Both the position numbers and the translations under genes were made by a program. Below are positions 6,557 through 53,517 of a DNA stretch of 64,000 bases, piece by piece; positions within the stretch are counted from its first letter, which is position 1, and every line of letters begins with the position of its first letter. The notes beneath the pieces were generated by a model that was given only the letters and a program-made list of their open reading frames with translations, was not told where the DNA came from and searched no databases. The DNA comes from Psychrilyobacter atlanticus DSM 19335 (lineage in GTDB: Bacteria; Fusobacteriota; Fusobacteriia; Fusobacteriales; Fusobacteriaceae). The stretch covers positions 2,161,159-2,225,158 of the forward strand of contig NZ_KE384547.1 in NCBI RefSeq assembly GCF_000426625.1, in the 5' to 3' direction.

Positions 6557-6566
6557 ACAACCTATA

Positions 6567-10693: not shown

Positions 10694-10733
10694 ACTACAC
10701 GAAAATCACTGAAAAAGAACACCCCGTTGAGTT

Positions 10734-10762: not shown

Positions 10763-10795
10763 CTGATTAACACATAGGAACAAGAGGAGGTTAAG

Positions 10796-12205
10796 ATGAA
10801 GTTTGCGAATGACTTTTTATTTGGTGCAGCAACAGCTGCCTATCAAGTAGAAGGAGCTTGGAATCAAGATGGTAAGGGAATGAGTAACTGGGATGAATTT
10901 ACAAAAATACCTGGAAAGACTTTTAACGGCACAAACGGAGATGTTGCTGCTGATCACTACAACAGATATAAAGAAGATATAGCTTTAATGGCTGAAATGG
11001 GATTAGAGTCATACAGATTTTCTATTTCATGGCCTAGAATTTTCCCCAATGGGGACGATGAAATAAACCCAAAGGGAATAGAATTTTATAATAATTTAAT
11101 AGATGAATGCCTAAAGCATGGAATAGTACCATTTGTAACTCTCTACCACTGGGATCTACCTTTAACGTTAGAAAAAGAGGGCGGATGGCTAAATAAAAAA
11201 ACAGGAGAAGCATTTGTTAATTATGCCAAAACCTGCTTTGAAGCTTTTGGAGATAGAGTTAAAAATTTTATAACATTCAACGAAACCGTTGTATTTTGCG
11301 GATCGGGGTATCTTGCAGGAGCTCATCCTCCAGGGATTCAAAATGATGTAAAAAAGTATTTTCAAGCAATACACAATGTATTTTATGCACATGCCTGTGC
11401 AGTACTTGAATATAAAAAGTTAGACCTCTTTGGAGAGATTGGACTCAGTAATGTATTTAGTCCCGCCTTTCCTGTAACAGATGGTCATGAAGATACACTT
11501 GCAGCAATCCATGCTAATGAATACGGGACTCACTGGTTCTATGATCCTATTCTACATGGAAAATACCCTGAGTATGTAATTAAGAGACTGGAAAAAAATG
11601 GGTACTTACCAGATTGGACAACAGGGGAATTAAAAACTCTGGCTAAGGCAGCTCCCCTGAATGACTTCATGGGATTAAACTACTATCAGCCAATTAGAGT
11701 TGAAAAGATCAGTGGAGAGGTCGAAAAGATTGAAATAACCAGGGAAAATTCAACTGGATCTCCAGGAAATCCAAGTTTTGACGGTTATTACAGAAGTGTA
11801 AAAATGGATGACAAGAGATATACTAAGTGGGACTGGGAAATCTCACCAGAAGGGTTTCTTGAGGGATTAGAGATGCTAAAAGATAGATATGGTCAAATAA
11901 AACTCTATATAACTGAAAATGGATTAGGAGATGAAGATCCTATAATTGATGGAGTTATATGTGATATTCCTAGAATAAAATTTATCGAGGAACATCTAAA
12001 GTCAGTAAAAGAAGCAGTTAAAAGAGGAATTCATATAAAAGGTTATTATGCTTGGTCAGCAATAGATCTTCTAAGCTGGCTAAATGGATATAAAAAACAA
12101 TATGGATTTATCTATATAGATCATAAAAATAACCTGGAAAGAAAGAAAAAAATGTCATTCCACTGGTATAAAAATATAATAGAAACGAGGGGGAAAGAAT
12201 TATAA
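10796..12205 (+). CDS. 6-phospho-beta-glucosidase / beta-glucosidase, GH1
   Basis: The 469-residue product is a full-length family 1 glycosidase. The N-terminal signature FLFGAATAAYQVEGAW starts at residue 8. The acid/base glutamate is in TFNET (Glu163) and the nucleophile is in ITENG (near Glu374). It would hydrolyse beta-glucosides in the cytoplasm. Because the next three genes encode a cellobiose-type PTS, the natural substrate is probably a 6-phosphorylated disaccharide. However, GH1 members of non-phosphorylated specificity look alike, so this is inference. A strong ribosome-binding site AGAGGAGG precedes the start. The stop overlaps the EIIC start by one base, indicating coupling. Confidence 0.92.
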   Translation: MKFANDFLFGAATAAYQVEGAWNQDGKGMSNWDEFTKIPGKTFNGTNGDVAADHYNRYKEDIALMAEMGLESYRFSISWPRIFPNGDDEINPKGIEFYNNLIDECLKHGIVPFVTLYHWDLPLTLEKEGGWLNKKTGEAFVNYAKTCFEAFGDRVKNFITFNETVVFCGSGYLAGAHPPGIQNDVKKYFQAIHNVFYAHACAVLEYKKLDLFGEIGLSNVFSPAFPVTDGHEDTLAAIHANEYGTHWFYDPILHGKYPEYVIKRLEKNGYLPDWTTGELKTLAKAAPLNDFMGLNYYQPIRVEKISGEVEKIEITRENSTGSPGNPSFDGYYRSVKMDDKRYTKWDWEISPEGFLEGLEMLKDRYGQIKLYITENGLGDEDPIIDGVICDIPRIKFIEEHLKSVKEAVKRGIHIKGYYAWSAIDLLSWLNGYKKQYGFIYIDHKNNLERKKKMSFHWYKNIIETRGKEL

Positions 12206-13533
12206 TGGCAGCAGTAATGGAAAAGATAAATAAAATATTGCCACATGTAATGAAGTTTGTTAATTCTAAGGCAGTAACGGCAATGAAGGAAGGGTTCCTA
12301 ATGACCATGCCGTTAACAATTATAGGATCTGTATTTTTACTCCTAGCCTTTGTACCAATTTCAGGGTATGAGGGATTTATGGCAGGAATATTTGGAGCTG
12401 AGTGGCAGAGTCCACTGTTTCAGGTAGTAGGGGCTACATTTGACCTATTAGCTCTTGTAGGAGTATTTGGAATTGCTTATTGTTATGTAGTTCATGAGGG
12501 AATAGACGGAGCTGTAAATGCAGGTATACTGGGAATTGTATCTCTTATTACAGTAATGAAATCCTTTGTGGAAGCAGCTGATGGCACTCAGATAGGAGGG
12601 GTAATTCCAAAGGCTTTCCTTGGAGGAAGAGGGATGATCGCATCAATCATCATAGGTCTTGCAGTAGGAAAGATCTACTCATTTGTAATCAAGAAGAAGT
12701 GGACTATAAAGCTGCCTGACAGCGTACCTACAGGAGTGTCAAATGCATTCACATCATTAATCCCAGGATTTATAATTATAACTATATCATTTTTAACATT
12801 TATCTTCTTTAAGGTGGGATTCCAGAAAACATTTATCGAGGTAATCTATTCCCTTATTCAGACTCCACTTCAGGGAATGACAGATTCATTTGCAGGTGTA
12901 ATCCTAATACCAGTTCTTATCTCACTACTATGGTGGTGTGGAATTCATGGGTCAGGAATCATAATGGGGATAATGGGTCCTATCGTTATGGCTAATGCTA
13001 TTCACAACCAGACTCTGGTAAATGCAGGAACAGACCTTGTTGCAGGAGAAAATGCAAGAATAGTAACTCAGCAGTTTGTGGATCAATTTATAACTGTTGG
13101 TGGTTCAGGTCTTACTCTTGGACTTGTAGTAAGTATGCTTATATTTGCAAAGTCAACTCAATATAAACAGCTTGGAAGACTGGCTATCGTACCTGGACTA
13201 TTTAACATCAATGAGCCCGTAATTTTCGCTGCACCAATAGTATTTAATCCAATCATGTTTATACCTTTTGTACTAGCTCCGCTTTGTTCAGCACTTCTTG
13301 TGTATGGTTGTATCTCACTGGGAATTGTTGAGCCATTTACAGGAGTTCTGGTTCCCTGGACTACCCCAATTATTCTAGGTGGATTTATTGTTGGTGGATT
13401 TAAAGCCGCATTACTACAGTTTGCAGTATTTATAATGACAATAGGAATCTATTTCCCGTTTTTCAAATACCAAGACAACATGGCGTATCTTGCGGAAACA
13501 GGTGGAAGTGATGCTAAGGAAGCAATGGCATAA
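12205..13533 (+). CDS. celB: PTS cellobiose/lactose-family EIIC permease
   Basis: The 442-residue integral membrane protein has about ten hydrophobic segments. It carries the EIIC signatures of the lactose/cellobiose family, including WWCGIHGSGI near residue 248 and GLFNINEPVIFAAPIVFNP near residue 330. It moves the sugar while EIIB phosphorylates it. Separate EIIB and EIIA genes follow downstream, the standard three-gene arrangement. The paired glycosidase makes a beta-glucoside the likely substrate; cellobiose itself is an inference. Confidence 0.93.
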   Translation: MAAVMEKINKILPHVMKFVNSKAVTAMKEGFLMTMPLTIIGSVFLLLAFVPISGYEGFMAGIFGAEWQSPLFQVVGATFDLLALVGVFGIAYCYVVHEGIDGAVNAGILGIVSLITVMKSFVEAADGTQIGGVIPKAFLGGRGMIASIIIGLAVGKIYSFVIKKKWTIKLPDSVPTGVSNAFTSLIPGFIIITISFLTFIFFKVGFQKTFIEVIYSLIQTPLQGMTDSFAGVILIPVLISLLWWCGIHGSGIIMGIMGPIVMANAIHNQTLVNAGTDLVAGENARIVTQQFVDQFITVGGSGLTLGLVVSMLIFAKSTQYKQLGRLAIVPGLFNINEPVIFAAPIVFNPIMFIPFVLAPLCSALLVYGCISLGIVEPFTGVLVPWTTPIILGGFIVGGFKAALLQFAVFIMTIGIYFPFFKYQDNMAYLAETGGSDAKEAMA

Positions 13534-13596
13534 TAAAAGAAGAGGGTCAGAAAAAAGTGTGAAAATAAGCTAATAGAAAACTAGGGAGGAAAAATT

Positions 13597-13905
13597 ATGA
13601 AAAAAATATTATTACTCTGCAACGCAGGAATGTCTACATCAATAGTGGTAAAAAAAATGAAGGAAGCAGCAGAAAAAAAGGAAATAGAAACTGAAATAAA
13701 TGCAGTAAGTATGGATAAATTCGAAGAGAATTTAGATAAATATGATATCTTTTTACTAGGACCTCAAATCAGTTTCAAGAAAAATGAACTTCAAGCAAAG
13801 GCTGATGCAGTTAACAAAAAAGTAGAAGTTATAAATTCTATGGACTATGGAATGATGAAGGGTGAAAAAATACTGGAGGAAACTTTAGTAAAGTTAGAAA
13901 AGTAA
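13597..13905 (+). CDS. celA: PTS cellobiose-family EIIB
   Basis: The 102-residue cytoplasmic protein begins MKKILLLCNAGMSTS. Cys8 in the CNAGMSTS loop is the phosphorylated residue of this EIIB family. Length and fold pattern are normal. It passes phosphate from EIIA to the sugar bound by EIIC. The ribosome-binding site is GGGAGG. The 63-base gap after the EIIC gene contains no terminator, so it belongs to the same operon. Confidence 0.94.
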   Translation: MKKILLLCNAGMSTSIVVKKMKEAAEKKEIETEINAVSMDKFEENLDKYDIFLLGPQISFKKNELQAKADAVNKKVEVINSMDYGMMKGEKILEETLVKLEK

Positions 13906-13953
13906 AATCAAGTTATATCTAAAATAATATAAATCAGTAATTGGGGGAATAAA

Positions 13954-14265
13954 ATGGATATGGAAATGGCTGCAATGGGACTTGTCGGAAACTCTGGAGA
14001 GGCAAGAAGCCTAGCTTTTGAAGCAATAAAAAAAGCTAAAGACGGAAAATATGATGAAGCAAGAGAAATGCTTGAAAAAGCTAAAAAGAAATCACTATTA
14101 GCTCATGAAACTCAAACAGAGTTAATTTGTGCTGAAGCAGATGGGAAAAAAATGGAGATGGGTTTATTAATGGTTCATGCTCAAGATCACCTTATGACAT
14201 CTATCTTAGCAAGAGATTTGGCGGCAGAAATCATTGATTTACATGAAAAATTAAATAATAAATAA
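13954..14265 (+). CDS. celC: PTS lactose/cellobiose-family EIIA
   Basis: The 103-residue all-helical protein has the conserved LLMVHAQDHLMTS segment with His75 and His79, one of which accepts phosphate from HPr. Trimers of this three-helix protein deliver phosphate to EIIB. The start follows GGGGGAAT. It is the last gene of the beta-glucoside operon; a terminator follows. Confidence 0.94.
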   Translation: MDMEMAAMGLVGNSGEARSLAFEAIKKAKDGKYDEAREMLEKAKKKSLLAHETQTELICAEADGKKMEMGLLMVHAQDHLMTSILARDLAAEIIDLHEKLNNK

Positions 14266-14277
14266 AAGCTAAAAAAA

Positions 14278-14318
14278 TTAGGATGACTAAAGAGAGTCAT
14301 CCTATTTTAATATCTTTT
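14278..14318 (+). terminator. Terminator of the cellobiose PTS operon
   Basis: TAGGATGACT and AGTCATCCTA form a 10-bp stem, followed by a T-rich run. Confidence 0.75.
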
Positions 14319-14416
14319 TTTTACATTTGTGGTTATTATACACTTTGTGTTAACATAAAAGTAATCAGAGCTCTGTCTACATTTTTAGAGCTTCAATCAA
14401 TTAGGAGATGAGAAAA

Positions 14417-42799: not shown

Positions 42800-42838
42800 A
42801 TTATACAAAAAAAAAGGAGCTTTCGCTCTCTTTTTTTA
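42800..42838 (-). promoter_or_regulatory. Terminator followed by -10 element upstream of dxr
   Basis: On the minus strand GAGAGCGAAAGCTCC runs into a long T tract (42838-42807), a terminator that would originally end the uppS-cdsA transcript. TATAAT (42805-42800) follows directly and could serve dxr, without a good -35. Confidence 0.5.
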
Positions 42839-42909
42839 TTATCTAAGAAATTATAAAATTTATGTAATAAATAAAATATTATAAAAACTTAAATTATGCT
42901 TGTTTGGAT

Positions 42910-42946
42910 GCAACGTCACGAAGATATAGTAGAATTTTAGTGTCAA
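42910..42946 (+). repeat. Left terminal inverted repeat of the inserted element
   Basis: The outer block GCAACGTCACGAA and the inner block AATTTTAGTGTCAA match the right end read on the other strand at 28 of 37 positions. The inner GTGTCAA resembles the GTGTAAA end of IS256-type repeats. Confidence 0.75.
42914..42920. repeat. 7-bp direct repeat, left copy
   Basis: CGTCACG, identical in direct orientation at 52652-52658. As an inverted repeat the pair would have one mismatch, so target-site duplication fits slightly better for these seven bases. Confidence 0.5.
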
Positions 42947-42950
42947 GAGA

Positions 42951-42966
42951 TTGACATTAGAATTTT
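42951..42966 (-). repeat. Subterminal inverted copy of the inner repeat
   Basis: TTGACATTAGAATTTT is the complement, with three differences, of the inner block at 42931-42946, four bases away. It may be an extra transposase binding site. Confidence 0.5.
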
Positions 42967-43126
42967 GCTATTTTTTTTATAAATTTATAGCAGAAAATTT
43001 TTAAAGGTTTGGAAAATAGTAATTTCCCACCTTTTTTTTAAAACCTCGATAGAGGTTTTAGGCTTTCCTTGTCACAACGTATTAATTCAGAGAAAGTCTT
43101 ATTTATCAATAAAAAAGGGTGATTTA
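42966..43126 (+). other. Rep leader with two hairpins, candidate replication origin
   Basis: TGCTAT and ATAGCA (42966-42992) flank an AT palindrome. A 9-bp perfect hairpin TAAAACCTC-GATA-GAGGTTTTA lies at 43039-43060. It is not followed by T residues, so it is unlikely to be a terminator. Lying just upstream of a HUH Rep gene, it could be the double-strand origin; the nick site is not identified. Confidence 0.4.
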
Positions 43127-44395
43127 ATGTCAGGGGTTACTGTTATTACTGGAAAAATTAAAAAAACAGGTGATGTATTTCAATATTCAAATTATGATAC
43201 TGGAGTAGTTACAGGTGATAAAAAGTATGACTACAAGTGTGAAAATGGGAAATATTGGAAAAAAAAGCATATTATGGGATCTCTTCCAATCTATGAAGAA
43301 GTCAAAGTAGGTCGTGGAGAAAAAAAAGACCTATCACAATTACAAAAAGGAGAGCTATATTCATATTTAAATAATAAATCAATTAACATAAGAAGAAAAA
43401 TTGCAGAATTTAAAGATTTATACCTATGTAATGTTTTAAAATATCAAGATCATAAAGGACAGATCTGTTTACCTAAGATGATAACTATCACCTTTAAAAA
43501 TGATATTAAAGATTATGAAGTGGCAGTTTTAGAAATGGATAAAACTATTAAAAGGATTCAATATTTTGTCCAGACAAGATTTGATAAAAATTTCAAATTA
43601 AGAGCTGTAGGAGTAAGAGAAGTTCACAAAGAGAAAAGAGAGGGATATCATTTTCATTTTATAGCCTTTAATCTTCCATATATTGACAGAGATAAATTTA
43701 AAAAATTTGGTGAAAAAGAATCTACTAATAGTGGCAGAGTTGAAATATCAGTATTAAAGCAATTTAAAAAGAAATATATTGATTATAGTAGTGATGGAAT
43801 AGAAGAAAAAATAAGTTTTGTTGAAAATCCAGTCTCATATCTGTCTAAGGCACTAACTTATTTATCTAAGGAATTAGATGATCTATATAAAATAGATTAC
43901 TCAATGGATCTTAGAGAAGATAAAGAGCTAATGGCAAAATTAAAAAATGAACTTAACAGAAAAACACTATTCAAAGTTGGGAAATTAATTAAACCTGAAG
44001 TTATTAATTTGTATTCAAATGAAGAATTTGAACATGAATTAAACAAGGCATTTGATAACTATAAATTTAAAGATCATTTTAGTTTCAATACTGAATTTCT
44101 CGGATGGATAGATTTATATAAATTTGTAGACCATAGGGGTAAAAGCGATCTAGTGGATAGTGTCCTAGATACTTTAGGCTTTAGTTATGAATACATAGAA
44201 GAAAATGAAAATATAGATAAATTAAAACATTATAAAATAAATAAATTTTTTATAAATTATAAAGAAAATAAATTAATGTATATTGATAATAGTAATTTCA
44301 TAGAAATAGATAAAAATCTATTTAATCATATTTTAGATATCAATGATTTAAGTAATGAAATAAAACAATTTATAATAAAAAATAAGGGGGAATAA
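43127..44395 (+). CDS. HUH-endonuclease rolling-circle replication initiator
   Basis: The 422-residue protein has the three motifs of HUH Rep proteins. Motif 1 is LPKMITITFKN near residue 118. Motif 2 is GYHFHFIAFN near 175, with the two metal-binding histidines. Motif 3 is PVSYLSKALTYLSKEL near 238, where Tyr is followed three residues later by Lys. It would nick the origin and stay covalently bound to the 5' end. There is no helicase domain. The C-terminal 150 residues are unrecognised. The start follows AAAGGGTG. The family occurs in filamentous phages, other small ssDNA phages and plasmids; I cannot choose from sequence alone. Confidence 0.8.
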   Translation: MSGVTVITGKIKKTGDVFQYSNYDTGVVTGDKKYDYKCENGKYWKKKHIMGSLPIYEEVKVGRGEKKDLSQLQKGELYSYLNNKSINIRRKIAEFKDLYLCNVLKYQDHKGQICLPKMITITFKNDIKDYEVAVLEMDKTIKRIQYFVQTRFDKNFKLRAVGVREVHKEKREGYHFHFIAFNLPYIDRDKFKKFGEKESTNSGRVEISVLKQFKKKYIDYSSDGIEEKISFVENPVSYLSKALTYLSKELDDLYKIDYSMDLREDKELMAKLKNELNRKTLFKVGKLIKPEVINLYSNEEFEHELNKAFDNYKFKDHFSFNTEFLGWIDLYKFVDHRGKSDLVDSVLDTLGFSYEYIEENENIDKLKHYKINKFFINYKENKLMYIDNSNFIEIDKNLFNHILDINDLSNEIKQFIIKNKGE

Positions 44396-44399
44396 AAAA

Positions 44400-44657
44400 A
44401 TGGATATGTTACTAAGAAATGCAACAGTTCAGGAGCTAAAAGTCAGTGAATGGGAGGGAAAAGAATATTATTCAATTTTATTAAATGGTGGGCTTGTATC
44501 TCCAAAAGTAAAATTAACTCATGAGCAATTCAAAAAGTTAAAAAAAGATGGTGTAGGTCATAACTCAGTATTAAACATAGAATTTGATGTTCAATATTCA
44601 GATAAAACAAAATGTGTTCACAACGGTAATAAATTAGTATCTTATGAAATCGTATAA
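44400..44657 (+). CDS. Small protein, possible ssDNA-binding protein
   Basis: The 85-residue protein directly follows rep (four bases) and overlaps the next gene by one base. It is beta-rich with alternating hydrophobic residues (YYSILLNGG, VLNIEFDVQYS), consistent with a small OB fold. Its size matches gene V type ssDNA-binding proteins of filamentous phages (about 85 residues). I see no diagnostic motif, so the role is inferred from size and position. The ribosome-binding site is AAGGGGG. Confidence 0.4.
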   Translation: MDMLLRNATVQELKVSEWEGKEYYSILLNGGLVSPKVKLTHEQFKKLKKDGVGHNSVLNIEFDVQYSDKTKCVHNGNKLVSYEIV

Positions 44658-45034
44658 TGAATATTTCTATCTTTGGGATAATAGAATTAAAACCTTATAA
44701 ATTAGGATTTGAAACCATTAAAACTGTAAGACTTATAGTTGATTCAGAAAGATTTTACATTTTAAAAGGATTAAAAACTGATTTAGGATCTATTCCTAAA
44801 CCTTTAAGGATAATTTTTCCTAGATATGGACTTGAAACTACTGGCTATGTAATACATGACTATGGTTATAGAGTGCAGCCAAAAAATACAAATCGTAAAT
44901 TTTGGGATAATGTCCTTTTACAGATCTTAAAAGACCAGGGCATAAAATACTATAAAAGATATTCTATCTATTGGGGGCTTAGATCATTTGGTTGGGTCGC
45001 ATGGAATAAAAATAAAAAACAACTGGGGAGGTGA
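44657..45034 (+). CDS. DUF1353-family phage protein
   Basis: The 125-residue protein has the two DUF1353 blocks: TDLGSIPKPLRIIFP near residue 41, then GYVIHDYGYR near 65, followed by FWDNVLLQILKDQGI and GWVAW. This family is frequent in phage genomes and has no established function. The start overlaps the previous stop (TAATG), so translation is coupled. Its presence supports a phage rather than a simple insertion sequence origin for this block. Confidence 0.85.
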   Translation: MNISIFGIIELKPYKLGFETIKTVRLIVDSERFYILKGLKTDLGSIPKPLRIIFPRYGLETTGYVIHDYGYRVQPKNTNRKFWDNVLLQILKDQGIKYYKRYSIYWGLRSFGWVAWNKNKKQLGR

Positions 45035-45039
45035 CTTGT

Positions 45040-45228
45040 TTGGATGATTTTGAAAAAGAATTTTTAAAAAAATATAAAGATGATCATCCTCCAGTATTTG
45101 AAATGACTATGTTTTTAATGGGAAAAATGAACAAATTTAATAGAGATTTAAAAATATTGATTTATATATTAATATCTTTCCTTTTTCCTGTGTATTTAGT
45201 AGTCTTTCAGTTTATATTAAAAAAATAG
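45040..45228 (+). CDS. Small single-span membrane protein
   Basis: I take TTG 45040 as the start because GGGGAGG lies nine bases before it; the in-frame GTG at 45031 overlaps the site itself. The 62-residue product has an acidic/basic N-terminal helix and one C-terminal membrane segment (LKILIYILISFLFPVYLVVF). It has a holin-like or minor coat protein-like size, but nothing diagnostic. It is coupled to the DUF1353 gene. Confidence 0.55.
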   Translation: MDDFEKEFLKKYKDDHPPVFEMTMFLMGKMNKFNRDLKILIYILISFLFPVYLVVFQFILKK

Positions 45229-45244
45229 AAAAAGGGGTGATTAG

Positions 45245-46087
45245 ATGGGATTGTTATTTGATAGTAGCCTATATAGTGGTGAACTCTTAGCAAAAGATAT
45301 TTTTTATTATCTAAGTAAATTTAGAACTGATAGAAAATTTTCAAAATTAAGTTTTAAAAAAGGTATTACAGGAAAATTTGAGCCATTACAGGTTAATGGT
45401 ATTACTGCATATTTCAATGATTTGATAATGATTGTTAAAGTAAGCGGTTCGGATAATGGGAAAGATATAGAAGAGTACATGACTTATGATGAGTATCTAA
45501 TTTATAAAGATCTTGGTAGACCAATTGATTATTTGTCTGTTGAATTTGATGATATATTTATAGGATTTAAATCAATATCATCAGTAGATACAGAAGAATT
45601 AAATAGTTATACTTATGAAACTGTTTTATTAAATCTAGGAAATGGTAGATATTGTATAAGATTAAAATCTTTATTTGATGAAATAAAAAAAGGAAATGTA
45701 AGTTTTGATGGAGGAAATGACTTTAGTACTAATCTATCTGTCTTACAAAGAAATGGATATAATGAAAATTATTTAGAATTTGCTTTTATGGTAGGTGATT
45801 CAAAATTTTCAAGTGGATATCCTATTGATATGTTGAATTTTATTAAACCAAAAATAAATAATCCATTTTTATATCCTACTTATTTTGGTGATAATAAAGA
45901 AATTAATGTTGAAAGTTCAGGTGGGGGAAGTGGTGGTGGATCTCCATTTAGTCCAATTCAAGCAGAGTTGATAAGTAAAGCATTATGTAAAATCTTGTTA
46001 ACTGTTGATCCTTTTGAGAGAGATGAAAGAGTCTTAGAGGGTGCAGGAATAAACAATTCAGGAAGACGACCAAGACCACCACAATAA
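45245..46087 (+). CDS. Element protein of unknown function, 280 aa
   Basis: I do not recognise this protein. It is mostly beta-strand and charged segments (residues 1-225) with no membrane span. A flexible linker (GGGSGGGS near residue 227) and a short C-terminal tail ending GRRPRPPQ follow. The domain-linker-tail layout is seen in virion and adsorption proteins, so a structural role is a guess. The start follows AAGGGGTG. A 5-bp GGGGG/CCCCC hairpin separates it from the next gene. Confidence 0.55.
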   Translation: MGLLFDSSLYSGELLAKDIFYYLSKFRTDRKFSKLSFKKGITGKFEPLQVNGITAYFNDLIMIVKVSGSDNGKDIEEYMTYDEYLIYKDLGRPIDYLSVEFDDIFIGFKSISSVDTEELNSYTYETVLLNLGNGRYCIRLKSLFDEIKKGNVSFDGGNDFSTNLSVLQRNGYNENYLEFAFMVGDSKFSSGYPIDMLNFIKPKINNPFLYPTYFGDNKEINVESSGGGSGGGSPFSPIQAELISKALCKILLTVDPFERDERVLEGAGINNSGRRPRPPQ

Positions 46088-46096
46088 TAAATACAA

Positions 46097-46116
46097 TGGG
46101 GGATTAAGTTCCCCCT
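46097..46116 (+). other. Intercistronic hairpin
   Basis: GGGGG and CCCCC pair around ATTAAGTT, with TTAAAAT after it. It may be a weak terminator or mRNA processing/stability element between two element genes. Confidence 0.45.
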
Positions 46117-46134
46117 TAAAATGAGGTTGATTTT

Positions 46135-47118
46135 ATGGTTTCTGTTTCAAAAATAATAGAAAATTCAAGAATTGCACAAGATCATACATATTTTAGGCAT
46201 GATAAACACTTTAGGAAAGTTTTTTTTATGGATATGCAAAAAGTTAATACAATAAGTGAATTAAGAGGAATAACAAGTTTCTATTCATTTGCTCGTTATA
46301 TTAAACCTGTAATGTCTTATTTATTCCCTTATTCTGACAGTTTTACAATGGTTTCTTCTTATGGACAAACTGAATATTCAGATGTAAAGCCTAATCCTGT
46401 TGATGATGATGACAATGGTGATGTTTTATATGGTAATTATTATTTATTTTTTAACCATTATATTGAAGTGATCGCACCAAATGAAGAAAAGTATTTGTTT
46501 GTATTCACTACTATGGGTGCTTTAACTAGATATAATTCAGAAGAGTATTCCGCACTTACTCAGGAATATATAAACTTTTTTAAGAGGTCATGGAAAGGTT
46601 ATAGAATTTCAAAAAATGATTTTAATTATTTTTTAAGAGGTTATTCTGATTTTAGTTATATGAAAAAATACTTATATTTTAGATTTTATTTAAACTCTTT
46701 TACTGAGGATGGGGCAATGTATGATTATTGGTTTAAACGTCTATTTAAATTTAATTACCCAGTATTAAAAGTTCACTATAATTCAAAGGATTATTTATCA
46801 AATATAAAAAGTGATTTTTTTAAAGAAGATAGTCCAGAGTTAAAAGAAAAAGAAAATCTTCAACTTTTGTATGAAGAACTAAAATCAAAATACTTAGATA
46901 AACTAGAGAAAAAGAAAAGATTAAATCTTGATTTTGATTATGAAGTAAAAGAATATTTTAATGGTTCAGATAGTAAACTTGGCATAATTATTAAAGAAAA
47001 AGGCTTTATTGTAGATGAAATCTTTATAACTCTTGATGGTATCGGGAAAAACATTTCAAAGAATTTTGATAAATTAGATTTTGAAATTATGTTTAATGAA
47101 ATTTATATAAAAAATTAG
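46135..47118 (+). CDS. Element protein of unknown function, 327 aa
   Basis: Not recognised. It is rich in Tyr, Phe and Asp (for example FNHYIEVIAPNEEKYLFVF), has no signal peptide or membrane span, and has an acidic patch DDDDNGD near residue 90. Near residues 240-270 it reads ENLQLLYEELKSKYLDKLEK then KKRLNLDFDYEVKEYF. The next protein has a similar stretch (ENELAKFLYYLSNSG, then NKKRLDPSFGYNLDY), so the two may share a domain. A capsid or assembly role is possible but unsupported. The start is preceded by GAGGTTGAT. Confidence 0.5.
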   Translation: MVSVSKIIENSRIAQDHTYFRHDKHFRKVFFMDMQKVNTISELRGITSFYSFARYIKPVMSYLFPYSDSFTMVSSYGQTEYSDVKPNPVDDDDNGDVLYGNYYLFFNHYIEVIAPNEEKYLFVFTTMGALTRYNSEEYSALTQEYINFFKRSWKGYRISKNDFNYFLRGYSDFSYMKKYLYFRFYLNSFTEDGAMYDYWFKRLFKFNYPVLKVHYNSKDYLSNIKSDFFKEDSPELKEKENLQLLYEELKSKYLDKLEKKKRLNLDFDYEVKEYFNGSDSKLGIIIKEKGFIVDEIFITLDGIGKNISKNFDKLDFEIMFNEIYIKN

Positions 47119-47134
47119 TTAAAAGGGGGATAGA

Positions 47135-49024
47135 ATGGGATTTTTAGGTTTATTTCTTGTAACATCATTTTCACATTTACTTCTATTTTATTCTATAAAT
47201 TATTACTTTTTTAGTCCTGATGATGAAAAAAGAAATGAAATATTTAATGAAATGATTGATAAATTAATTAATAGTTTACCTCAAATATATGAGGGATTAG
47301 ACCCGTTTCCAGTAGATAGCAAGATTAAATCTATTCTTATAGATTCTAATAATTTACATTTAAATGTAGTAACAAACAACCCTAATTATTCTAGCGGTCA
47401 CTTAAGATATACTATTCCTTTCGATGAAAAGTCAAAACAGGATGAATTTAATTTCTTAAAAACCTTTAAATGGTTATTTAAAAGTCATCCCTTATGGGAT
47501 TTAGCTCAACAAAAACACACAACTTTTGAAGTTGAAATGCTAGAAAAAAATTATAAATTTTATTATATAATGAATGATTTATCTTTAAGCCAATTAGGAA
47601 ATTTTTCAAATGATTTTAGTGAAGATCTTTATCCAATCCATAACCCTGATTATGATCCTGAAACAAATCCAAATGTTCCTCAGATCATAGCAGAAAAAGG
47701 ACACGAAAGAGTATTTTTAATATTAGATCATCATGTAGATAAGAAAAAGCTAGAAATAAAATTAATTGATAAATCAGATGGGATATCAGAATTTGAAAAA
47801 GAATTAACTAAAAAAGAAAAAGCAGAAAATGAACTAGCAAAATTTTTATATTATCTTTCTAACTCTGGGATAGTAAAGAATTTAGAAAATAAGAAAAGAT
47901 TAGATCCTAGTTTTGGTTATAACTTAGACTATGGGATAAATAAAGATGATGAATTTTATTATACTCTTGAAACTTTTAAAATCAAAACAGATGGTAATAA
48001 ACAGGAAGGATCAGAAAAAAATGAGGAAGTTTATAATCCTAATGTATCCGATATCTTAGAAAAGGCAGGTGCAACAGTGGTAAAAATAGACCCTGAAAGT
48101 AGAAAATTATATATTCAAAATCCTGAATTGAAGATGGAAAACAATGCCAGTGTCAATTTGGCAGTTACAGAGGGGTCTAAGGTTGGACTTGATACAGGTG
48201 GTCAATCTGTAAAACTAGATGGTAATGGTCAATCAGTGGCTTTAAATACAGCCAATAAATCGGTAGATTTAAATGTTAAAAATAAGAAAGTGGCTTTAGA
48301 TATTACTGGAAAAGAGATTAATTTAAATGTTCCTAAAGATTCTCAAATAGGTTTAAAAACTACTGATGATACAGGAAAATTAAAACAAGTTGAATTAAAG
48401 GTAACAGATGAAAATGGTGAAACAAAAACGATTGCCATAGATGGAATAGGTACTGATGAATGGAATACTTTGATTGGGGCTTTAAGTATAAGACAAGAAA
48501 AGTTAAAAATCATTGATCAAAATAATATTGATGCTTATAGATTTGAATATGTTAATGATCCCGCTAGAGGAATAGAAAAAGAGGTTTCAAAGTATAAAAA
48601 GAAAAGATTTGAAACTATAGTAACTGAACCTGATGGAAGAAAAGATTTGATCCAAAGAGAACTTCAAGAGTGGGAACAAAAACATAGTACAAAGAAAAAA
48701 GGAGAGTTTAAAGATTCTTATGGTGAAACAGTAGAAATTAAACAAGGTTATTATAGTAATCAAGATCCATTAATAAAAGCTTATCATGAAATTAATCATA
48801 GGACTTTAGGGAAAAATCAAGCAGATATTTATATCGCTAATAATTTAACCGATTTAGAAGAAACCCCTAATGAAGTTTCAAAAGAGGTAGAAAAAATAGA
48901 AATAGTGAAATCAGAGTTACCACAGGAATTAACAGATTATCAGATAGTAGAAGATGTCGGTATAAAATTCTTTGATAATTCAGAGGTACAAAATATTGAT
49001 GGTGACTTAGATTTGATTAAGTAA
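47135..49024 (+). CDS. Membrane-anchored repeat protein, candidate spike/adsorption protein
   Basis: The 629-residue protein has an N-terminal membrane segment (about 4-27) and an acidic soluble body. At about residues 345-410 it has six consecutive nine-residue repeats of the form VxLNxxxKS (VKLDGNGQS, VALNTANKS, VDLNVKNKK, VALDITGKE). Such short repeats usually build a beta-solenoid or trimeric fibre. The C-terminal part (430-629) is charged and unrecognised. It is the largest product of the element and resembles phage spike or host-recognition proteins in layout only. The start follows AAGGGGGA. Confidence 0.55.
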   Translation: MGFLGLFLVTSFSHLLLFYSINYYFFSPDDEKRNEIFNEMIDKLINSLPQIYEGLDPFPVDSKIKSILIDSNNLHLNVVTNNPNYSSGHLRYTIPFDEKSKQDEFNFLKTFKWLFKSHPLWDLAQQKHTTFEVEMLEKNYKFYYIMNDLSLSQLGNFSNDFSEDLYPIHNPDYDPETNPNVPQIIAEKGHERVFLILDHHVDKKKLEIKLIDKSDGISEFEKELTKKEKAENELAKFLYYLSNSGIVKNLENKKRLDPSFGYNLDYGINKDDEFYYTLETFKIKTDGNKQEGSEKNEEVYNPNVSDILEKAGATVVKIDPESRKLYIQNPELKMENNASVNLAVTEGSKVGLDTGGQSVKLDGNGQSVALNTANKSVDLNVKNKKVALDITGKEINLNVPKDSQIGLKTTDDTGKLKQVELKVTDENGETKTIAIDGIGTDEWNTLIGALSIRQEKLKIIDQNNIDAYRFEYVNDPARGIEKEVSKYKKKRFETIVTEPDGRKDLIQRELQEWEQKHSTKKKGEFKDSYGETVEIKQGYYSNQDPLIKAYHEINHRTLGKNQADIYIANNLTDLEETPNEVSKEVEKIEIVKSELPQELTDYQIVEDVGIKFFDNSEVQNIDGDLDLIK

Positions 49025-49025
49025 A

Positions 49026-49051
49026 GAAAAAAGAGGGGTTATTTCCCTCTA
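49026..49051 (-). terminator. Minus-strand terminator inside the element
   Basis: On the minus strand AGAGGG and CCCTCT pair and are followed by TTTTTTCTT, ending the zinc-ribbon gene transcript. Confidence 0.7.
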
Positions 49052-49215
49052 AGATCTGAATGGCAATATTTACATTTAATTGCTTTTTTATTAATAGATT
49101 CCCTACAATAAGGACAATGTTTAAAAAAGAAATGTTCATAAATTTTATATGGAATATATATAATTAAAAGTGGTACAAATATAAATAAAATCGTTCCGAT
49201 TATTTCTCTTAACAT
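49039..49215 (-). CDS. Small membrane zinc-ribbon protein, only minus-strand gene of the element
   Basis: I take ATG 49215, after GAGGTGAT, giving 58 residues. An N-terminal hydrophobic segment of about 22 residues (IIGTILFIFVPLLIIYIPY) is followed by a zinc ribbon with CPYC and CKYC. It has its own terminator. Its opposite orientation and independent unit mark it as an accessory (moron-like) gene. Superinfection exclusion or a regulatory role is possible, but nothing in the sequence proves it. Confidence 0.65.
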   Translation of the reverse strand: MLREIIGTILFIFVPLLIIYIPYKIYEHFFFKHCPYCRESINKKAIKCKYCHSDLRGK

Positions 49216-49281
49216 ATTAATCACCTCGATTAATTATACATTATATTTTTATGTAATTCAATTTTATAAAAGGAGGTTTAT

Positions 49282-49896
49282 ATGGCAATTCCTATTATGG
49301 TTTCATATGCTTTAGTTGGAGTAGCTAATGCAATGTCTAATATTTTAGTAGAGTCCTTGGTTGATACTACTGTAGATTATGTTATTGACGGTATAGATGA
49401 AGCAATGCAAAAAGCTATGCCAAATTTTGAAAGCTCATACATGAAACAATTTACTAATCAAGTTAGAATGGGAGCAGCAACTGCAACTAATGCTCGGATT
49501 ATGGGAGCAGCTCTTAAATCTCAAAATAAATTTGAGGGACGTATGGATTTATTGAGACAAAAATCAAAAGAAAAATATAATCGTCAAAGACAAGGGATAA
49601 AGGATTCAACTTTAGCATTAGTAGGAGAAAAAAGGGCATTAGATAAATTAAAAAATTCATATGATAAAGAAATGGAAAGATTAGATCGTTCTAGTGATCG
49701 GTATACAAAAATAAGAAGTTCATCTGCAACGGAAGCCAATGCTTTTTCAAATGGTACAGGAGCTTTAAAAACTGGTCATGATGGAACTATTCAAAACTTA
49801 AAAGGTAATCCAAACGCGGATCTCGTTGTAAGTATAAATAGATTATTAAATGGGTTAGGAAACTATGAAAATAAAGAGGGGGTATTAGCTATATGA
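49282..49896 (+). CDS. Helical protein with hydrophobic N-terminus, pilot-like, unknown
   Basis: The 204-residue protein has an Ala/Val/Ile-rich N-terminal segment (residues 3-35). Long amphipathic helices with many Lys, Arg, Gln and Asp follow (for example RMDLLRQKSKEKYNRQRQG), then a Gly/Asn-rich tail. That arrangement resembles DNA pilot or membrane-penetration proteins of small phages, but the similarity is structural impression only. AAAGGAGG is a strong ribosome-binding site. Its stop overlaps the next start as ATGA. Confidence 0.5.
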   Translation: MAIPIMVSYALVGVANAMSNILVESLVDTTVDYVIDGIDEAMQKAMPNFESSYMKQFTNQVRMGAATATNARIMGAALKSQNKFEGRMDLLRQKSKEKYNRQRQGIKDSTLALVGEKRALDKLKNSYDKEMERLDRSSDRYTKIRSSSATEANAFSNGTGALKTGHDGTIQNLKGNPNADLVVSINRLLNGLGNYENKEGVLAI

Positions 49897-50060
49897 CAAT
49901 GAATGAGATATTTAGAATATGGGGGCTTTTAAAATTTGTTGAAGAGATCTCTATAACTAAGGATAAAAAAGTCAATCTTTATGATAAAGATAAAAAACTA
50001 TTGATGAGTGTTCCACTTGCAATTTTTGAAAAAATTCAAGGTGAAAAAAATGTTGTTTAA
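49893..50060 (+). CDS. Small overlapping element gene, 55 aa, unknown
   Basis: ATG 49893 overlaps the previous stop (ATGA) and the frame runs to TAA at 50058-50060. The product begins MTMNEIFRIWGLLKFVEE and is mixed hydrophobic and basic, with no membrane segment. It is supported by the four-base overlap upstream and by its stop overlapping the start of the next gene; together these look like a translationally coupled chain. Confidence 0.55.
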   Translation: MTMNEIFRIWGLLKFVEEISITKDKKVNLYDKDKKLLMSVPLAIFEKIQGEKNVV

Positions 50061-50427
50061 ACTGACTTACTCCCTTGCCTCTGGTGATACAAGTATTAGA
50101 GATGCAAGTTTTGCGAGTGAAGCTAAAGCACTGGATTTTCTTCAAGCATATAACAGTTTAAATACTGGTGCTAAAATTATAAGGGTAAATAAATTAGTAG
50201 CTGAATTATCATTAAAAGATAAAGTAAAATTTGGTAACCAAAACATAAATAAAAATGATTATTTTAATTTAAAAGTTCTATATGAAACTATTACCAAAGA
50301 AAGATTTAATATGACAATTCCATACTTGGAAAAAGCTAGAATCAACAAAAAAGATGTGGAAAAAATATTAGTGTATATACAAGATTATTCAAAAGATTTG
50401 GATATGAATTATAAAAAAAGTTATTAA
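50050..50427 (+). CDS. Element protein of unknown function, 125 aa
   Basis: I take ATG 50050, which has AAGGTG seven bases upstream and overlaps the end of the 55-aa gene; an upstream in-frame ATG at 50008 lies inside that gene without a site. The product has a beta-rich first half (FKLTYSLASGDTSIRDASF) and a helical, Lys-rich second half. It is not recognised. Its position just before the strongly expressed 147-aa gene suggests a virion or scaffolding role, as inference only. Confidence 0.5.
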   Translation: MLFKLTYSLASGDTSIRDASFASEAKALDFLQAYNSLNTGAKIIRVNKLVAELSLKDKVKFGNQNINKNDYFNLKVLYETITKERFNMTIPYLEKARINKKDVEKILVYIQDYSKDLDMNYKKSY

Positions 50428-50478
50428 TTCGCGATTAATATATATGCAAAAAAAACAAAAAAATGGAGGTAACAAATT

Positions 50479-50922
50479 ATGTCATTCAAATTAAGAAAAG
50501 GTACAAGTCTAACTTTACGTAGAGGGGATTCTAAAGGGATCGTATTTATGTTACAAGATTCACCGTTTATGAAACAAGGTAATGGAATTCATGTTGGTTT
50601 AGGTTCTTCTTCTGATGTAGAATCATTTATTGGAGGGATAGCAAGTGAACTTGATGGAGTAGTTAACAAGTATAACTGTCCTGCAGGAACTTATTACGAT
50701 GAAGATGCAGTAATCCCTAATGATACTAGAGGGGATTCAGCAAACAAAACTTTCACTGTAGCATTTAGTGATACTAAAGAAACTTGTGCAATAGTTATTC
50801 CAGCTGTTAAAATTACAGGAAATGTTGGAACAATCGCAGCATTCTTAAAAACTCAAGCTTTTAAGGATAAAGATGGAAAAGCATTAACTATTTCTAAGGT
50901 AGATGTTAAACAATCTTTCTAG
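50479..50922 (+). CDS. Candidate major structural protein of the element, 147 aa
   Basis: The gene has the best ribosome-binding site of the element (TGGAGGTAAC before ATG) and is directly followed by two hairpins, as expected for the most abundant product. The 147-residue protein has a basic start (MSFKLRKGTSLTLRRGD) and then a beta-rich body with NKTFTVAFSD and CAIVIPAVKITGNVG. There is no signal peptide or membrane span, unlike filamentous phage coat proteins. A small beta-sandwich capsid protein is a reasonable hypothesis. I know no family for it. Confidence 0.5.
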   Translation: MSFKLRKGTSLTLRRGDSKGIVFMLQDSPFMKQGNGIHVGLGSSSDVESFIGGIASELDGVVNKYNCPAGTYYDEDAVIPNDTRGDSANKTFTVAFSDTKETCAIVIPAVKITGNVGTIAAFLKTQAFKDKDGKALTISKVDVKQSF

Positions 50923-50942
50923 TTAATTTCTAGTAAGAAATA

Positions 50943-51014
50943 AGTTTTGACTCTGGAGTCAAAACTTTATAAGAACTTGAAAGTCTCTTTACTTAATAGT
51001 TTAGAGACTTTTTT
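50943..51014 (+). terminator. Tandem hairpins after the 147-aa gene
   Basis: First AGTTTTGACTC with GAGTCAAAACT (50943-50966, minimal loop). Then AAGTCTCT with AGAGACTT (50981-51010) followed by TTTTTTG, a normal terminator. Confidence 0.7.
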
Positions 51015-51356
51015 GTTTTTGTATAGATATAGTGCTTATTCTCCACCTAAAGCCTTTATGAGGATTTTTAATAGTCATCCCTATATTCTTATCATGATTT
51101 TACGACTAGTGGACAGGGGCTTGAATTATCGCCTTAAAGAAAAGATCCGATAGGATAACACCCGTAGGGGAAACTCTAAAGCATGGAGTTCTAAACCAAT
51201 AAAAATAGAATATTATACTTAAAATTTGCCATAGTAGTCCCGTAAGGGCGAGATGATAAGAAAAAAATAAAATTGATTATAGTACTAAAATTGAATAAAA
51301 CCTTTATAATTAGATTAAACAAAAATTAAGTTTTTTATATCTATTAGGGGAAGGAG
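51015..51356 (+). other. Structured non-coding stretch before the transposase
   Basis: About 340 bases with no convincing gene; a 68-codon frame over its first part has no ribosome-binding site. The section 51100-51260 has more GC than its surroundings and several small stems, including AACTC with GAGTT (51172-51190) and CCCGTAAGGG at 51239-51248. It may be an RNA, an origin, or a transposition-related site. No known RNA family is recognised. Confidence 0.4.
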
Positions 51357-51365
51357 ATGATTAAA

Positions 51366-52496
51366 ATGGGTACTTTAGAAACACAATTGTTTGATATAGC
51401 TATTAGAGCTATGGAGGGAGCTGTAAACGATATCTTGTATTATGAGAGGGAAGAGTTCTTATATGAGCAAAGGGAGGCTTATATAAAGAATAGAGGTAAT
51501 GGGTTCAATGATCGGGATTTTAAATTGAGTGATGCCAAGATATTAAAAATAAGAGTTCCTAAAGTAAGAAAAAATTCTAGGGATCTTGTTTATAGTATCT
51601 TTGATAAATACAAAAGAAATAGTAATGGATTTGAATCTAATTTGATAGATTTATATTCATCTAGGATCTTTGAAAAAGATATAGTAAAAATGTTAGGGAT
51701 TTCTAAAATATCACAATGTAGGAAAGATAAAATTTTAAGTGAATATATTCAAAAATATGAGGATTTCCTCGAGAAAATGAAACAAAGAGATTATGATTTA
51801 ATCAAATTAGATTCGACTTTTAAAGGTAAAAAGAAAAATAAATTTAAATATAATATATACTTTGCATGGGGATTTTATACAGAAAATAATGCAGTAAAAA
51901 AAGAGTGTTTATATTTTCATATTGCCCAGGGAAATGAGAACAAGCAAGAATGGGAAAAAGCTATATATTATCTAGTTAAAAATGTAAATTTGAAAAAGAC
52001 CAGACTAATTATTAGTGATATGTTTAACTCACTAAAAACTTCATTACGTGATATTAAAGAAAGTACTCCTCAATTAAAACATATTCTCTATCAAAATTGT
52101 ATTTGGCATAGATTGTATTCAATCTTTGATGTGTCTACTCTTCCAATGCAATTAAAACATAAATTATTTAGTTTATTTTATTCCAAATTTAAAACTACAA
52201 AAGATATATATCTTTTGAAAAAAATGTTAAATCAAGTAAAAAAAGTAAAATATGTAAATAAAAAAAATATAGATGGAATGTTAAATGTACATTATGAAGA
52301 TAACTTTAATTATCTGAGGGTATATGATGATTTAAAAGAGAAAGGGTATAGTACTAAAGATCTTATGCAAAATATGGATATTGAAAGTTTTCATGCAGAT
52401 CTAAAATTTTATTTAAAGAAAACAGTAAATTATACAAATTCAAACATCTTAAAAATGAGAATTATGATGTTTTTAGAACAAAAACAATATATTTAA
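51366..52496 (+). CDS. IS256-like (Mutator-type) DDE transposase
   Basis: I take ATG 51366, eight bases after GGAAGGAG; the ATG at 51357 abuts the site. The 376-residue protein has an N-terminal RVPKVRKNSRD block like IS256 enzymes. The catalytic Asp is in IKLDSTF (residue 149), the second Asp is in LIISDMF (218) with CIWH about 35 residues later, and the Glu is in MDIESFHADLK (340). The spacing is close to that of IS256 transposase. It is divergent and slightly short but looks intact. It lies at the right end of the element and probably mobilises the whole segment between the terminal repeats. Confidence 0.82.
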   Translation: MGTLETQLFDIAIRAMEGAVNDILYYEREEFLYEQREAYIKNRGNGFNDRDFKLSDAKILKIRVPKVRKNSRDLVYSIFDKYKRNSNGFESNLIDLYSSRIFEKDIVKMLGISKISQCRKDKILSEYIQKYEDFLEKMKQRDYDLIKLDSTFKGKKKNKFKYNIYFAWGFYTENNAVKKECLYFHIAQGNENKQEWEKAIYYLVKNVNLKKTRLIISDMFNSLKTSLRDIKESTPQLKHILYQNCIWHRLYSIFDVSTLPMQLKHKLFSLFYSKFKTTKDIYLLKKMLNQVKKVKYVNKKNIDGMLNVHYEDNFNYLRVYDDLKEKGYSTKDLMQNMDIESFHADLKFYLKKTVNYTNSNILKMRIMMFLEQKQYI

Positions 52497-52582
52497 AAAA
52501 AGCTAGGTTTTACTGGGATAACTACGTATTTTGATGAACTATAAATAAAAGTAATAGTATATATTGATATTTTGAATAAATT

Positions 52583-52620
52583 AAAAAAGCATAGAAAAAC
52601 CAAGGGGTTTCTATACTTTT
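52583..52620. terminator. Bidirectional terminator at the right end of the element
   Basis: AAAAGCATAGAAAAACC and GGTTTCTATACTTTT pair with a two-base bulge. It would stop the transposase mRNA and, on the minus strand, read-through from cdsA. Confidence 0.7.
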
Positions 52621-52625
52621 AAATT

Positions 52626-52662
52626 TTGACACTAAATTTAGATATTGTATTCGTCACGTTGC
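52626..52662 (-). repeat. Right terminal inverted repeat of the element
   Basis: Read on the minus strand: GCAACGTGACGAA outer block, then the inner block AAATTTAGTGTCAA. The outer end is three bases from the cdsA stop codon (52668-52666). Confidence 0.75.
52652..52658. repeat. 7-bp direct repeat, right copy
   Basis: CGTCACG, same orientation as the left copy at 42914-42920. Confidence 0.5.
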
Positions 52663-52665
52663 TTT

Positions 52666-53517
52666 TTATAGGAAAAAATTAATATAATAGTACATAAGCG
52701 GGAACACCCAGATTAAACTATCATATCTGTCCAAGATTCCCCCATGTCCACCTAATATTTTTCCTGAATCTTTTACACCAAATTCTCTTTTAAATACCGA
52801 TTCTGCCAAATCACCGATTTGACCAGTCACAGCTACTAATATAGGAACTATTATCAGATGAATTCCCGATATATTTAAGTCTTTAAATAAAAACCCTTTT
52901 ATAAGTAACATAGTTATAACAGTAAATATTATTGATCCCAAAGATCCCTCTATGGATTTTTTAGGACTTATCTCACAGAGTCCACGAGAAAATATTTTCC
53001 TTCCAAATTTTACTCCTACAAGATATGCAAATGTATCCGATATCCAAACCATTATTTGAATGGTCATCAGCCACTTACTTCCATTCAACATATATTTTAT
53101 AGGGACTATATGGGAAAATAAAAATCCTACATATAGTACTCCTAACATTGTATATCCAATATAACTGCTGCTACCTTCTACTTTATTTTGATATATTCTG
53201 ATGAACATCAGGATAAATATCCCCAAAATAAGAACCATAGTTCCCATAGACATATCAACATTATTTCCGATAAATTTCCCCAGTAGATCTTTACTCGATG
53301 AAATACTAGAATACAATGCCAGTGGTATTGCTCCTCCAAGTATTATACCTGCAACCTTATTTACAACTATTCCCTTTGATTCCATCATTTGATAGATCTC
53401 ATATATTCCTATCCCGGTTAAAAGCACTGTAAATGCCATAAAGCTTTTGTCTCCATAGAGGTATACATACACCGTCAGAGGAACCAATATTAAAGCCACC
53501 ATTATTCTATTTAACAT
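52666..53517 (-). CDS. cdsA: Phosphatidate cytidylyltransferase
   Basis: The 283-residue membrane protein has about eight hydrophobic segments. The C-terminal CDP-alcohol signature is SVFKREFGVKDSGKILGGHG then GILDRYDSL, near residues 238-267. It makes CDP-diacylglycerol for phospholipid synthesis. The C-terminus looks complete, so the adjacent insertion did not truncate it. It overlaps the uppS end by 11 bases. Its original terminator is probably the hairpin now found beyond the element, near 42820. Confidence 0.95.
   Translation of the reverse strand: MLNRIMVALILVPLTVYVYLYGDKSFMAFTVLLTGIGIYEIYQMMESKGIVVNKVAGIILGGAIPLALYSSISSSKDLLGKFIGNNVDMSMGTMVLILGIFILMFIRIYQNKVEGSSSYIGYTMLGVLYVGFLFSHIVPIKYMLNGSKWLMTIQIMVWISDTFAYLVGVKFGRKIFSRGLCEISPKKSIEGSLGSIIFTVITMLLIKGFLFKDLNISGIHLIIVPILVAVTGQIGDLAESVFKREFGVKDSGKILGGHGGILDRYDSLIWVFPLMYYYINFFL

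What the first reader, a model, noticed from the sequence alone, without database searches (positions are those of the whole stretch)
42910..52662. A ssDNA-phage-like genome packaged as a DDE transposon, inserted at the 3' end of cdsA
A 9.75-kb plus-strand block with a HUH Rep at one end and an IS256-like transposase at the other is flanked by imperfect inverted repeats. It contains a DUF1353 phage protein and a run of translationally coupled unknown genes. No integrase, Zot ATPase, terminase, portal or known capsid is visible. Known transposase-using small phages (for example Spiroplasma plectroviruses with IS30-type enzymes) make the lifestyle plausible. I know of no described family with this gene set and an IS256-type enzyme.
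Basis: partly seen in the sequence, partly recalled or inferred. Interest (0 to 1): 0.9.

Follow-up and report, generated by a model that had tools for sequence, protein, structure and literature searches.

The report
Transposase-integrated rolling-circle phage in Fusobacteria
A 9.7-kb, probably phage, genome that copies itself as a rolling circle carries an IS256-like transposase and has inserted exactly into the loop of a repeated DNA hairpin, in a small, previously undescribed group of elements found so far only in Fusobacteriota.

Summary
The block is a real, precisely bounded mobile element: 9,731 bp (42921-52651) flanked by a 7-bp direct repeat CGTCACG. A sister species has the same cdsA 3' locus without it. 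True 26-bp terminal repeats lie inside the duplication. Five relatives were found: one with the same Rep and transposase in the same kind of hairpin; one in another genus, in a terminator hairpin; a truncated one in another family; one free 8.8-kb circle without transposase; and one in the same genome with near-identical late genes but no transposase, at the host Xer/dif site. Rep and transposase are therefore not chance neighbours. SSB (predicted OB fold), an M15 endolysin or DUF1353 protein, and a conserved late operon argue for a temperate ssDNA-type phage. No Zot/packaging ATPase or known capsid was found, so the virion is unknown. Neisseria Nf phages also enter genomic palindromes by transposase; this is an unrelated group with a different enzyme.

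The parts
42833..42920 (.). left part of the host REP-type repeat (target), ending in GGATGCAACGTCACG
   Evidence: same repeat intact in G058, G054, G055 at this locus and in many copies elsewhere
42914..42920 (.). left copy of the 7-bp target duplication CGTCACG
   Evidence: single copy in the empty site of G058
42921..42946 (+). left terminal inverted repeat of the element
   Evidence: matches right end over 26 nt at 69%, conserved in L004
43040..43073 (+). candidate rolling-circle nick origin: hairpin AAAACCTC-GATA-GAGGTTTT then AGGCTTTCCTTGTC
   Evidence: hairpin and motif conserved upstream of the related Reps in L004 and L005; function inferred
43127..44395 (+). Rep, G2P-like HUH rolling-circle initiator, 422 aa
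   Evidence: PF23343 E=1.4e-7; 92% and 57% identical relatives
44400..44657 (+). single-stranded DNA-binding protein, 85 aa
   Evidence: AlphaFold2 pLDDT 82, OB fold, Foldseek to SSBs E=1.7e-4
44657..45034 (+). DUF1353 protein, 125 aa; proposed lysis enzyme
   Evidence: PF07087 E=2.3e-14; relatives L004 and L015 have an M15 endolysin instead; role inferred
45031..45228 (+). 65-aa protein with one C-terminal TM segment, holin-like or coat-like
   Evidence: hydropathy; homologues in L004, L005, L021; no family match
45245..46087 (+). 280-aa protein with Gly-rich linker, possible adsorption protein
   Evidence: 97% identical in L021; function inferred
46135..47118 (+). 327-aa protein of unknown function
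   Evidence: 96% identical in L021
47135..49024 (+). 629-aa protein with short repeats in its C-terminal half, shared with the 690/718/473-aa proteins of relatives
   Evidence: BLASTP
49039..49224 (-). antisense 61-aa membrane plus zinc-ribbon ORF
   Evidence: same ORF in the same place in L021
49282..49896 (+). 204-aa helical late protein with hydrophobic N-terminus, conserved in all members examined
   Evidence: alignments A3, A9; hhalign to L004/L005 counterpart E=2.5e-5
49893..50427 (+). 55-aa ORF and overlapping ~125-139-aa late protein (likely start 50050)
   Evidence: homologues in L021, L015, L022
50479..50922 (+). 147-aa late protein, coat candidate
   Evidence: homologues in L021, L015, L022; structure model poor; role inferred
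51116..51180 (+). conserved structured non-coding element, possible packaging signal
   Evidence: conserved in L021, L004, L005; three of 12 predicted pairs with compensatory change
51357..52496 (+). IS256-like DDE transposase, 379 aa
   Evidence: PF00872 E=1.6e-16; ISCth4 6XG8 E=1.1e-14, D152 and D221 aligned to its catalytic Asp; E343 invariant
52626..52651 (-). right terminal inverted repeat
52652..52665 (.). right copy of the duplication (52652-52658) and right half of the target hairpin

Best explanation
The element is a temperate, rolling-circle-replicating (ssDNA-type) phage that uses its own IS256-like DDE transposase as integrase. Shown: precise insertion with a 7-bp duplication centred on the 3-nt loop of a REP-type hairpin (window and L004); insertion with a 6-bp duplication centred on the loop of a perfect terminator hairpin in another genus (L015, empty site reconstructed from its flanks); conserved association of transposase and late module; a related free circle. 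Predicted: an OB-fold SSB. Inferred: the transposase works by the copy-out/paste-in path of its family, so the double-stranded transposon circle doubles as the phage replicative form; Rep nicks it at the hairpin upstream of rep, SSB coats the displaced strand, the late proteins package it and the lysis cassette releases it. Intergenic hairpin loops 3' of genes give many harmless landing sites. The transposase is a swappable module: a relative in the same genome lacks it and sits at the host Xer/dif site.
For: Empty sites and duplications; repeat census with zero in the reversed control; conserved transposase at the same place in four elements of three genera; catalytic Asp residues aligned with ISCth4; SSB fold; M15 endolysins in relatives; circular 8,832-bp relative; Xer/dif relative.
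Against: No capsid, portal, packaging ATPase or Zot recognised; no circular form of the window copy seen; hairpin targeting rests on three insertions, two in one repeat type; duplication lengths 7 and 6 bp, and the enzyme scores below the NCBIfam IS256 cut-off; a lysis role for DUF1353 is inferred only.
Confidence: 0.75

Rival explanations
1. A divergent filamentous (inovirus-like) phage whose export ATPase is lost, replaced or supplied by the host, extruded without lysis, with the 65-aa single-TM protein as major coat.
For: G2P-like or RstA-like Rep, SSB, circular 8.7-12 kb genomes, dif integration of L021 and a small single-TM protein all resemble inoviruses.
Against: No P-loop ATPase in any member although pI is the sole universal inovirus marker (PMC6813254); endolysins in two members; no PHROG inovirus match.
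Confidence: 0.12
2. Not a virus: a rolling-circle plasmid-like transposon (ICE-, IME- or plasmid-type) whose late genes serve transfer, surface display or another function.
For: No virion hallmark gene found; no phage record matches.
Against: Endolysin or DUF1353 gene in all five members whose lysis region is known; no relaxase or conjugation gene seen; no plasmid record matches either Rep type; modular late operon typical of phages.
Confidence: 0.11
3. Two unrelated nested insertions: an IS256-type insertion sequence beside a Rep element.
For: Transposase and Rep sit at opposite ends; L021 and L005 lack the transposase.
Against: Duplication and TIRs enclose the whole block; the same transposase lineage sits at the same place in four elements from three genera; no solo copy in the window's genome or its seven congeners.
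Confidence: 0.02

Closest known systems
Neisseria Nf1 / MDA filamentous phages (own transposase PivNM/Irg, target dRS3 repeats; PMC4471427, PMC3898611)
   Same: Small rolling-circle phage that integrates by its own transposase into an abundant intergenic palindromic repeat.
   Different: Nf phages are filamentous with a Piv-type transposase (IS110-like, from my own knowledge) and a 2-bp CT duplication; here an IS256-like DDE enzyme, a 6-7-bp duplication centred on a hairpin loop, no Zot, unrelated proteins.
Plectroviridae, genus Vespertiliovirus (Spiroplasma; PMC8295915)
   Same: Small circular ssDNA phage with a transposase; the packaged genome is a circular transposition intermediate.
   Different: There the transposase replaces Rep and virions are extruded rods from wall-less cells; here both Rep and transposase are present and lysis genes occur.
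IS256-family insertion sequences, e.g. ISCth4 (PMC7780238), and REP-targeting IS elements (PMC1525189)
   Same: Mutator-type DDE transposase, TIRs; some IS256 members are reported to target REPs.
   Different: Carries a whole replicon; the enzyme is far from ordinary IS256 transposases; IS256 (p-MULT 1) was described on insertion sequences only and without target motif (PMC3942029).
IMEX phages such as CTXphi (Xer/dif)
   Same: Relative L021 lies between two dif-like sites beside a host xer gene and has no integrase.
   Different: No Zot; the window element itself uses transposition instead.

Membership tests
Inoviridae / Tubulavirales | pI (Zot) FtsK-HerA-type ATPase | tested here: not met
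   No Walker A motif in any ORF except a chance match in a repeat of the L005 718-aa protein; no Zot in Pfam or PHROGs
Inoviridae / Tubulavirales | short (30-90 aa) single-TM structural proteins | tested here: inconclusive
   One 61-75-aa single-TM protein per element, equally holin-like
Inoviridae / Tubulavirales | rolling-circle Rep | tested here: met
   PF23343 E=1.4e-7
Microviridae / Finnlakeviridae | recognisable jelly-roll major capsid protein | tested here: inconclusive
   No sequence match in PHROGs or Pfam; structures of the late proteins not resolved
IS256 family transposase | RNase H-fold DDE catalytic residues | tested here: met
   D152 and D221 align with the catalytic Asp of ISCth4; E343 invariant in four phage transposases, not covered by the 6XG8 alignment
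IS256 family transposase | NCBIfam IS256 equivalog cut-off (150 bits) | tested here: not met
   67.5 bits, E=1e-18: related, not a standard member
IS256 family transposon | TIRs and short target duplication | tested here: met
   26-nt TIR and 7-bp duplication; L015 6 bp
IS256 family transposon | circular copy-out intermediate | not testable with these tools
   No reads; the circle L005 belongs to a relative without transposase
Nf/MDA-type phages | own transposase plus insertion into a repeated palindrome | tested here: met
Nf/MDA-type phages | Piv (IS110-type) enzyme and Zot-bearing filamentous genome | tested here: not met
   Enzyme is Mutator/IS256-like; no Zot
REP repeats (RAYT-mobilised) | RAYT (Y1) transposase in the host genome | tested here: not met
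   No PF01797 match in G000, G058, G054, G060; the repeat is REP-like only in structure and position

The most novel reading that the evidence does not exclude
An undescribed phage family, perhaps of high rank, with a virion of unknown build: no Zot and no packaging ATPase, a coat made from one or two ~130-147-aa proteins, lytic release, and interchangeable integration modules. One module is an IS256-like transposase that recognises hairpin loops and whose copy-out circle is at the same time the phage replicative form.
Probability: 0.45. Interest if true: 0.9.

Novelty: new variant of a known kind. Interest (0 to 1): 0.75.

Why it matters
It would add a phage group with no detected relative in the phage records searched, and a second, apparently independent case (after the Neisseria Nf phages) of a small phage that lands in genomic palindromes with its own transposase. 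It makes three things testable: whether an IS256-type transposon circle can serve as a phage replicative form, how a DDE transposase finds hairpin loops (useful as a safe-harbour integration tool), and how one virion module switches between transposition and Xer/dif integration within a single genome.

Tried and rejected
IMG/VR scans with Rep, transposase, 204-aa and RstA-like Rep queries found nothing; they use a few degenerate peptide patterns, so absence there is weak evidence. tblastn against GenBank phages and PLSDB plasmids: no match. AlphaFold2 of the 147-aa coat candidate was poor (pLDDT 50) and its Foldseek list meaningless. Tested by hhalign whether the 147-aa, ~132-aa and L004/L005 coat candidates are one family: not supported. 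A DUF1659/DUF2922-like fold was suspected; only E=0.43, dropped. Weak transposase hits in G011 and G035 lie in genes that read as asparagine synthetase (my reading of the translations), rejected. A tree of the transposases against ordinary IS256 copies failed because single-sequence search did not pick them up. Target as RAYT-mobilised REP: no RAYT found. Rfam: nothing in the element. A free circle of the window copy could not be tested (no reads).
Full report
WHAT IS THERE. The window lies at G000:C2:2161159-2225158, in a genus of the Fusobacteriaceae (the contig of a congener, L005/L006, is titled Fusobacteriaceae bacterium CSMAG_112). Between the dxr start (42687) and the cdsA stop (52666-52668), both on the minus strand, a block of plus-strand genes has GC skew opposite to its flanks. 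Pfam gives a G2P-like HUH Rep (43127-44395), DUF1353 (44657-45034) and a Mutator/IS256-type transposase (51357-52496); the other genes have no match above cut-off in Pfam and no convincing one in PHROGs.

EXACT ENDS AND TARGET. The sister species G058 (cdsA 97% identical) has ...TGTTTGGATGCATACGTCACGTTGCTTTTTATAGG... at the same place with no insert. The window reads ...TGTTTGGATGCAACGTCACG | element | CGTCACGTTGCTTTTTATAGG.... So the element is 42921-52651 (9,731 bp), flanked by the direct repeat CGTCACG (42914-42920, 52652-52658), with 26-nt imperfect TIRs just inside. G054 and G055 also carry the repeat 3' of cdsA without insert.

THE TARGET IS A REPEAT. GGATGCARCGTSACGYTGC (2 mismatches allowed) occurs 64 times in G000, 83 in G058, 66 in G054, 38 in G060 and 100 in G053, fewer times in the partial genomes G055 and G059, and never in the other 54 of the 61 genomes searched; the reversed control pattern gives 0 everywhere. 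Copies are part of a longer ~90-nt repeat, often follow a terminator (my reading), and 26 of 29 examined lie outside ORFs of 100 aa or more although the loci are 75% coding. The element-bearing genomes G000, G058, G060 and G053 are all repeat-bearing; G097 was outside that family-level search. No RAYT transposase was found in the repeat-bearing genomes of the genus.

RELATIVES. (A) G058, L004: element 5708-14410, 8,703 bp, same repeat type but GCAG..CTGC, again with duplicated CGTCACG, 3' of htpG; the orthologous site in G060 carries an uninterrupted repeat copy. That the two halves of the target change together (GCAA..TTGC against GCAG..CTGC) shows that they come from one palindrome. Rep 92%, SSB 89% and transposase 77% identical to the window, but a different late module and an M15 peptidase. 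(C) G060, L005: 8,973-bp contig with a 141-bp terminal overlap, that is a circle of 8,832 bp; Rep 57%, DUF1353, no transposase. (D) own genome, L021: RstA-like Rep in place of the G2P-like Rep (the label rests on my reading; PHROG replication protein E=0.004), late proteins 96-97% (280, 327 aa) and 87% (629 aa) identical to the window, no transposase. It lies between two copies of a dif-like site (7457, 16597). The single form ACTAAATATAA-TAACTG-TTATATTTAGT stands downstream of a conserved host xer gene in G058, and a near-identical form in G054. (E) another genus, L015: RstA-like Rep, SSB, M15 endolysin (PHROG endolysin E=4e-24), homologous late genes and an IS256-like transposase; its flanks join to AAAAGACGGC-TTGA-GCCGTCTTTT, a perfect terminator, with CTTGAG duplicated around the loop. 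(F) another family, L022: truncated, late genes followed by the same transposase lineage.

MEANING OF THE RELATIVES. The transposase is near the 3' end, after the coat-like genes, in all four elements that have it (in A an M15 gene lies between). This lineage (E<=1e-136 to its own profile) stands apart from ordinary, partly multi-copy IS256-type transposases of the phylum (E>=2e-16), and was not found solo in the window's genome or its congeners. Rep type, late module, lysis gene (M15 or DUF1353) and integration module are exchanged independently, as in phages. The near identity of window and L021 late genes inside one genome points to recent recombination between co-resident elements (inference).

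WHY A PHAGE, AND OF WHICH SORT. The 85-aa protein models as an OB-fold SSB (pLDDT 82; matches to mitochondrial and viral SSBs). M15 endolysin genes sit in two members; DUF1353 takes their place in three; most lie next to a 61-75-aa single-TM protein, so I read the pair as a lysis cassette (inference). Two non-coding elements are conserved: a hairpin plus GGCTTTCCTTGTC upstream of the G2P-like Rep (window, A, C), a candidate nick origin; and a ~65-nt element after the coat-like genes in window, A, C and D irrespective of Rep type, a candidate packaging signal. Against a filamentous phage: no Walker A motif apart from one chance match inside a repeat, while pI is the sole universal inovirus marker (PMC6813254). 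No capsid could be named.

MECHANISM. The transposase profile aligns with ISCth4 (6XG8, E=1.1e-14), both catalytic Asp in register. ISCth4 catalyses copy-out/paste-in, and IS256 forms double-stranded circles (PMC7780238); circle spacers of 6-10 bp are reported for Mutator-like elements (PMC3942029). I infer that excision by copy-out gives the circular replicative form on which Rep starts rolling-circle replication. Packaging of a transposition circle is described for Vespertiliovirus (PMC8295915), where, unlike here, the transposase replaces Rep.

NOVELTY. The way of life has precedent: Neisseria Nf phages use a transposase to enter dRS3 palindromes (PMC4471427, PMC3898611), and REP-targeting IS elements include IS256 members (PMC1525189). 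New here: the phage group (no relative in the phage and plasmid collections searched), an IS256-like enzyme as phage integrase (that family was described on insertion sequences only, with apparently random insertion; PMC3942029), insertion centred on hairpin loops of both REPs and a terminator, and the switch to Xer/dif within the group. Inoviruses with transposase genes are mentioned without family detail (PMC6813254), so an unpublished IS256-type case cannot be excluded. Hairpin recognition rests on three insertions, two of them in the same repeat type, so it is probable rather than proven.

Noticed in passing
G000, G058, G054, G060, G053 genomes; loci L052-L081: An abundant intergenic REP-like repeat family (~90 nt, ending GGATGCAACGTCACGTTGCTTTT) without a RAYT transposase; a REP catalogue (PMC3733652) does not mention Fusobacteria.
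   Followed up: partly
L021:6422-7482; L093; L095: A single xer-like gene with an adjacent palindromic dif-like site (ACTAAATATAA-TAACTG-TTATATTTAGT), reminiscent of the XerS/difSL and XerH/difH modules; used as integration site by the second element.
   Followed up: partly
window 51116-51180; L021 about 7900-8000 (-); L004 about 12690-12760; L005 about 6598-6670: Conserved structured non-coding element independent of Rep type; packaging signal, second-strand origin or RNA.
   Followed up: partly
window 49039-49224 (-); L021:9848-10042 (+): Antisense small membrane protein with a zinc ribbon, conserved inside the late operon; possible accessory gene.
   Followed up: no
L016 (G057:C186, 3,223 bp): Small contig with a distantly related HUH Rep (E=1e-7) and a second replication-type protein; plasmid-like, no late genes.
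   Followed up: no
L022:1191-2039: Two tandem homologues (144 and 134 aa) of the window's 147-aa coat candidate, hinting at a two-component coat.
   Followed up: partly
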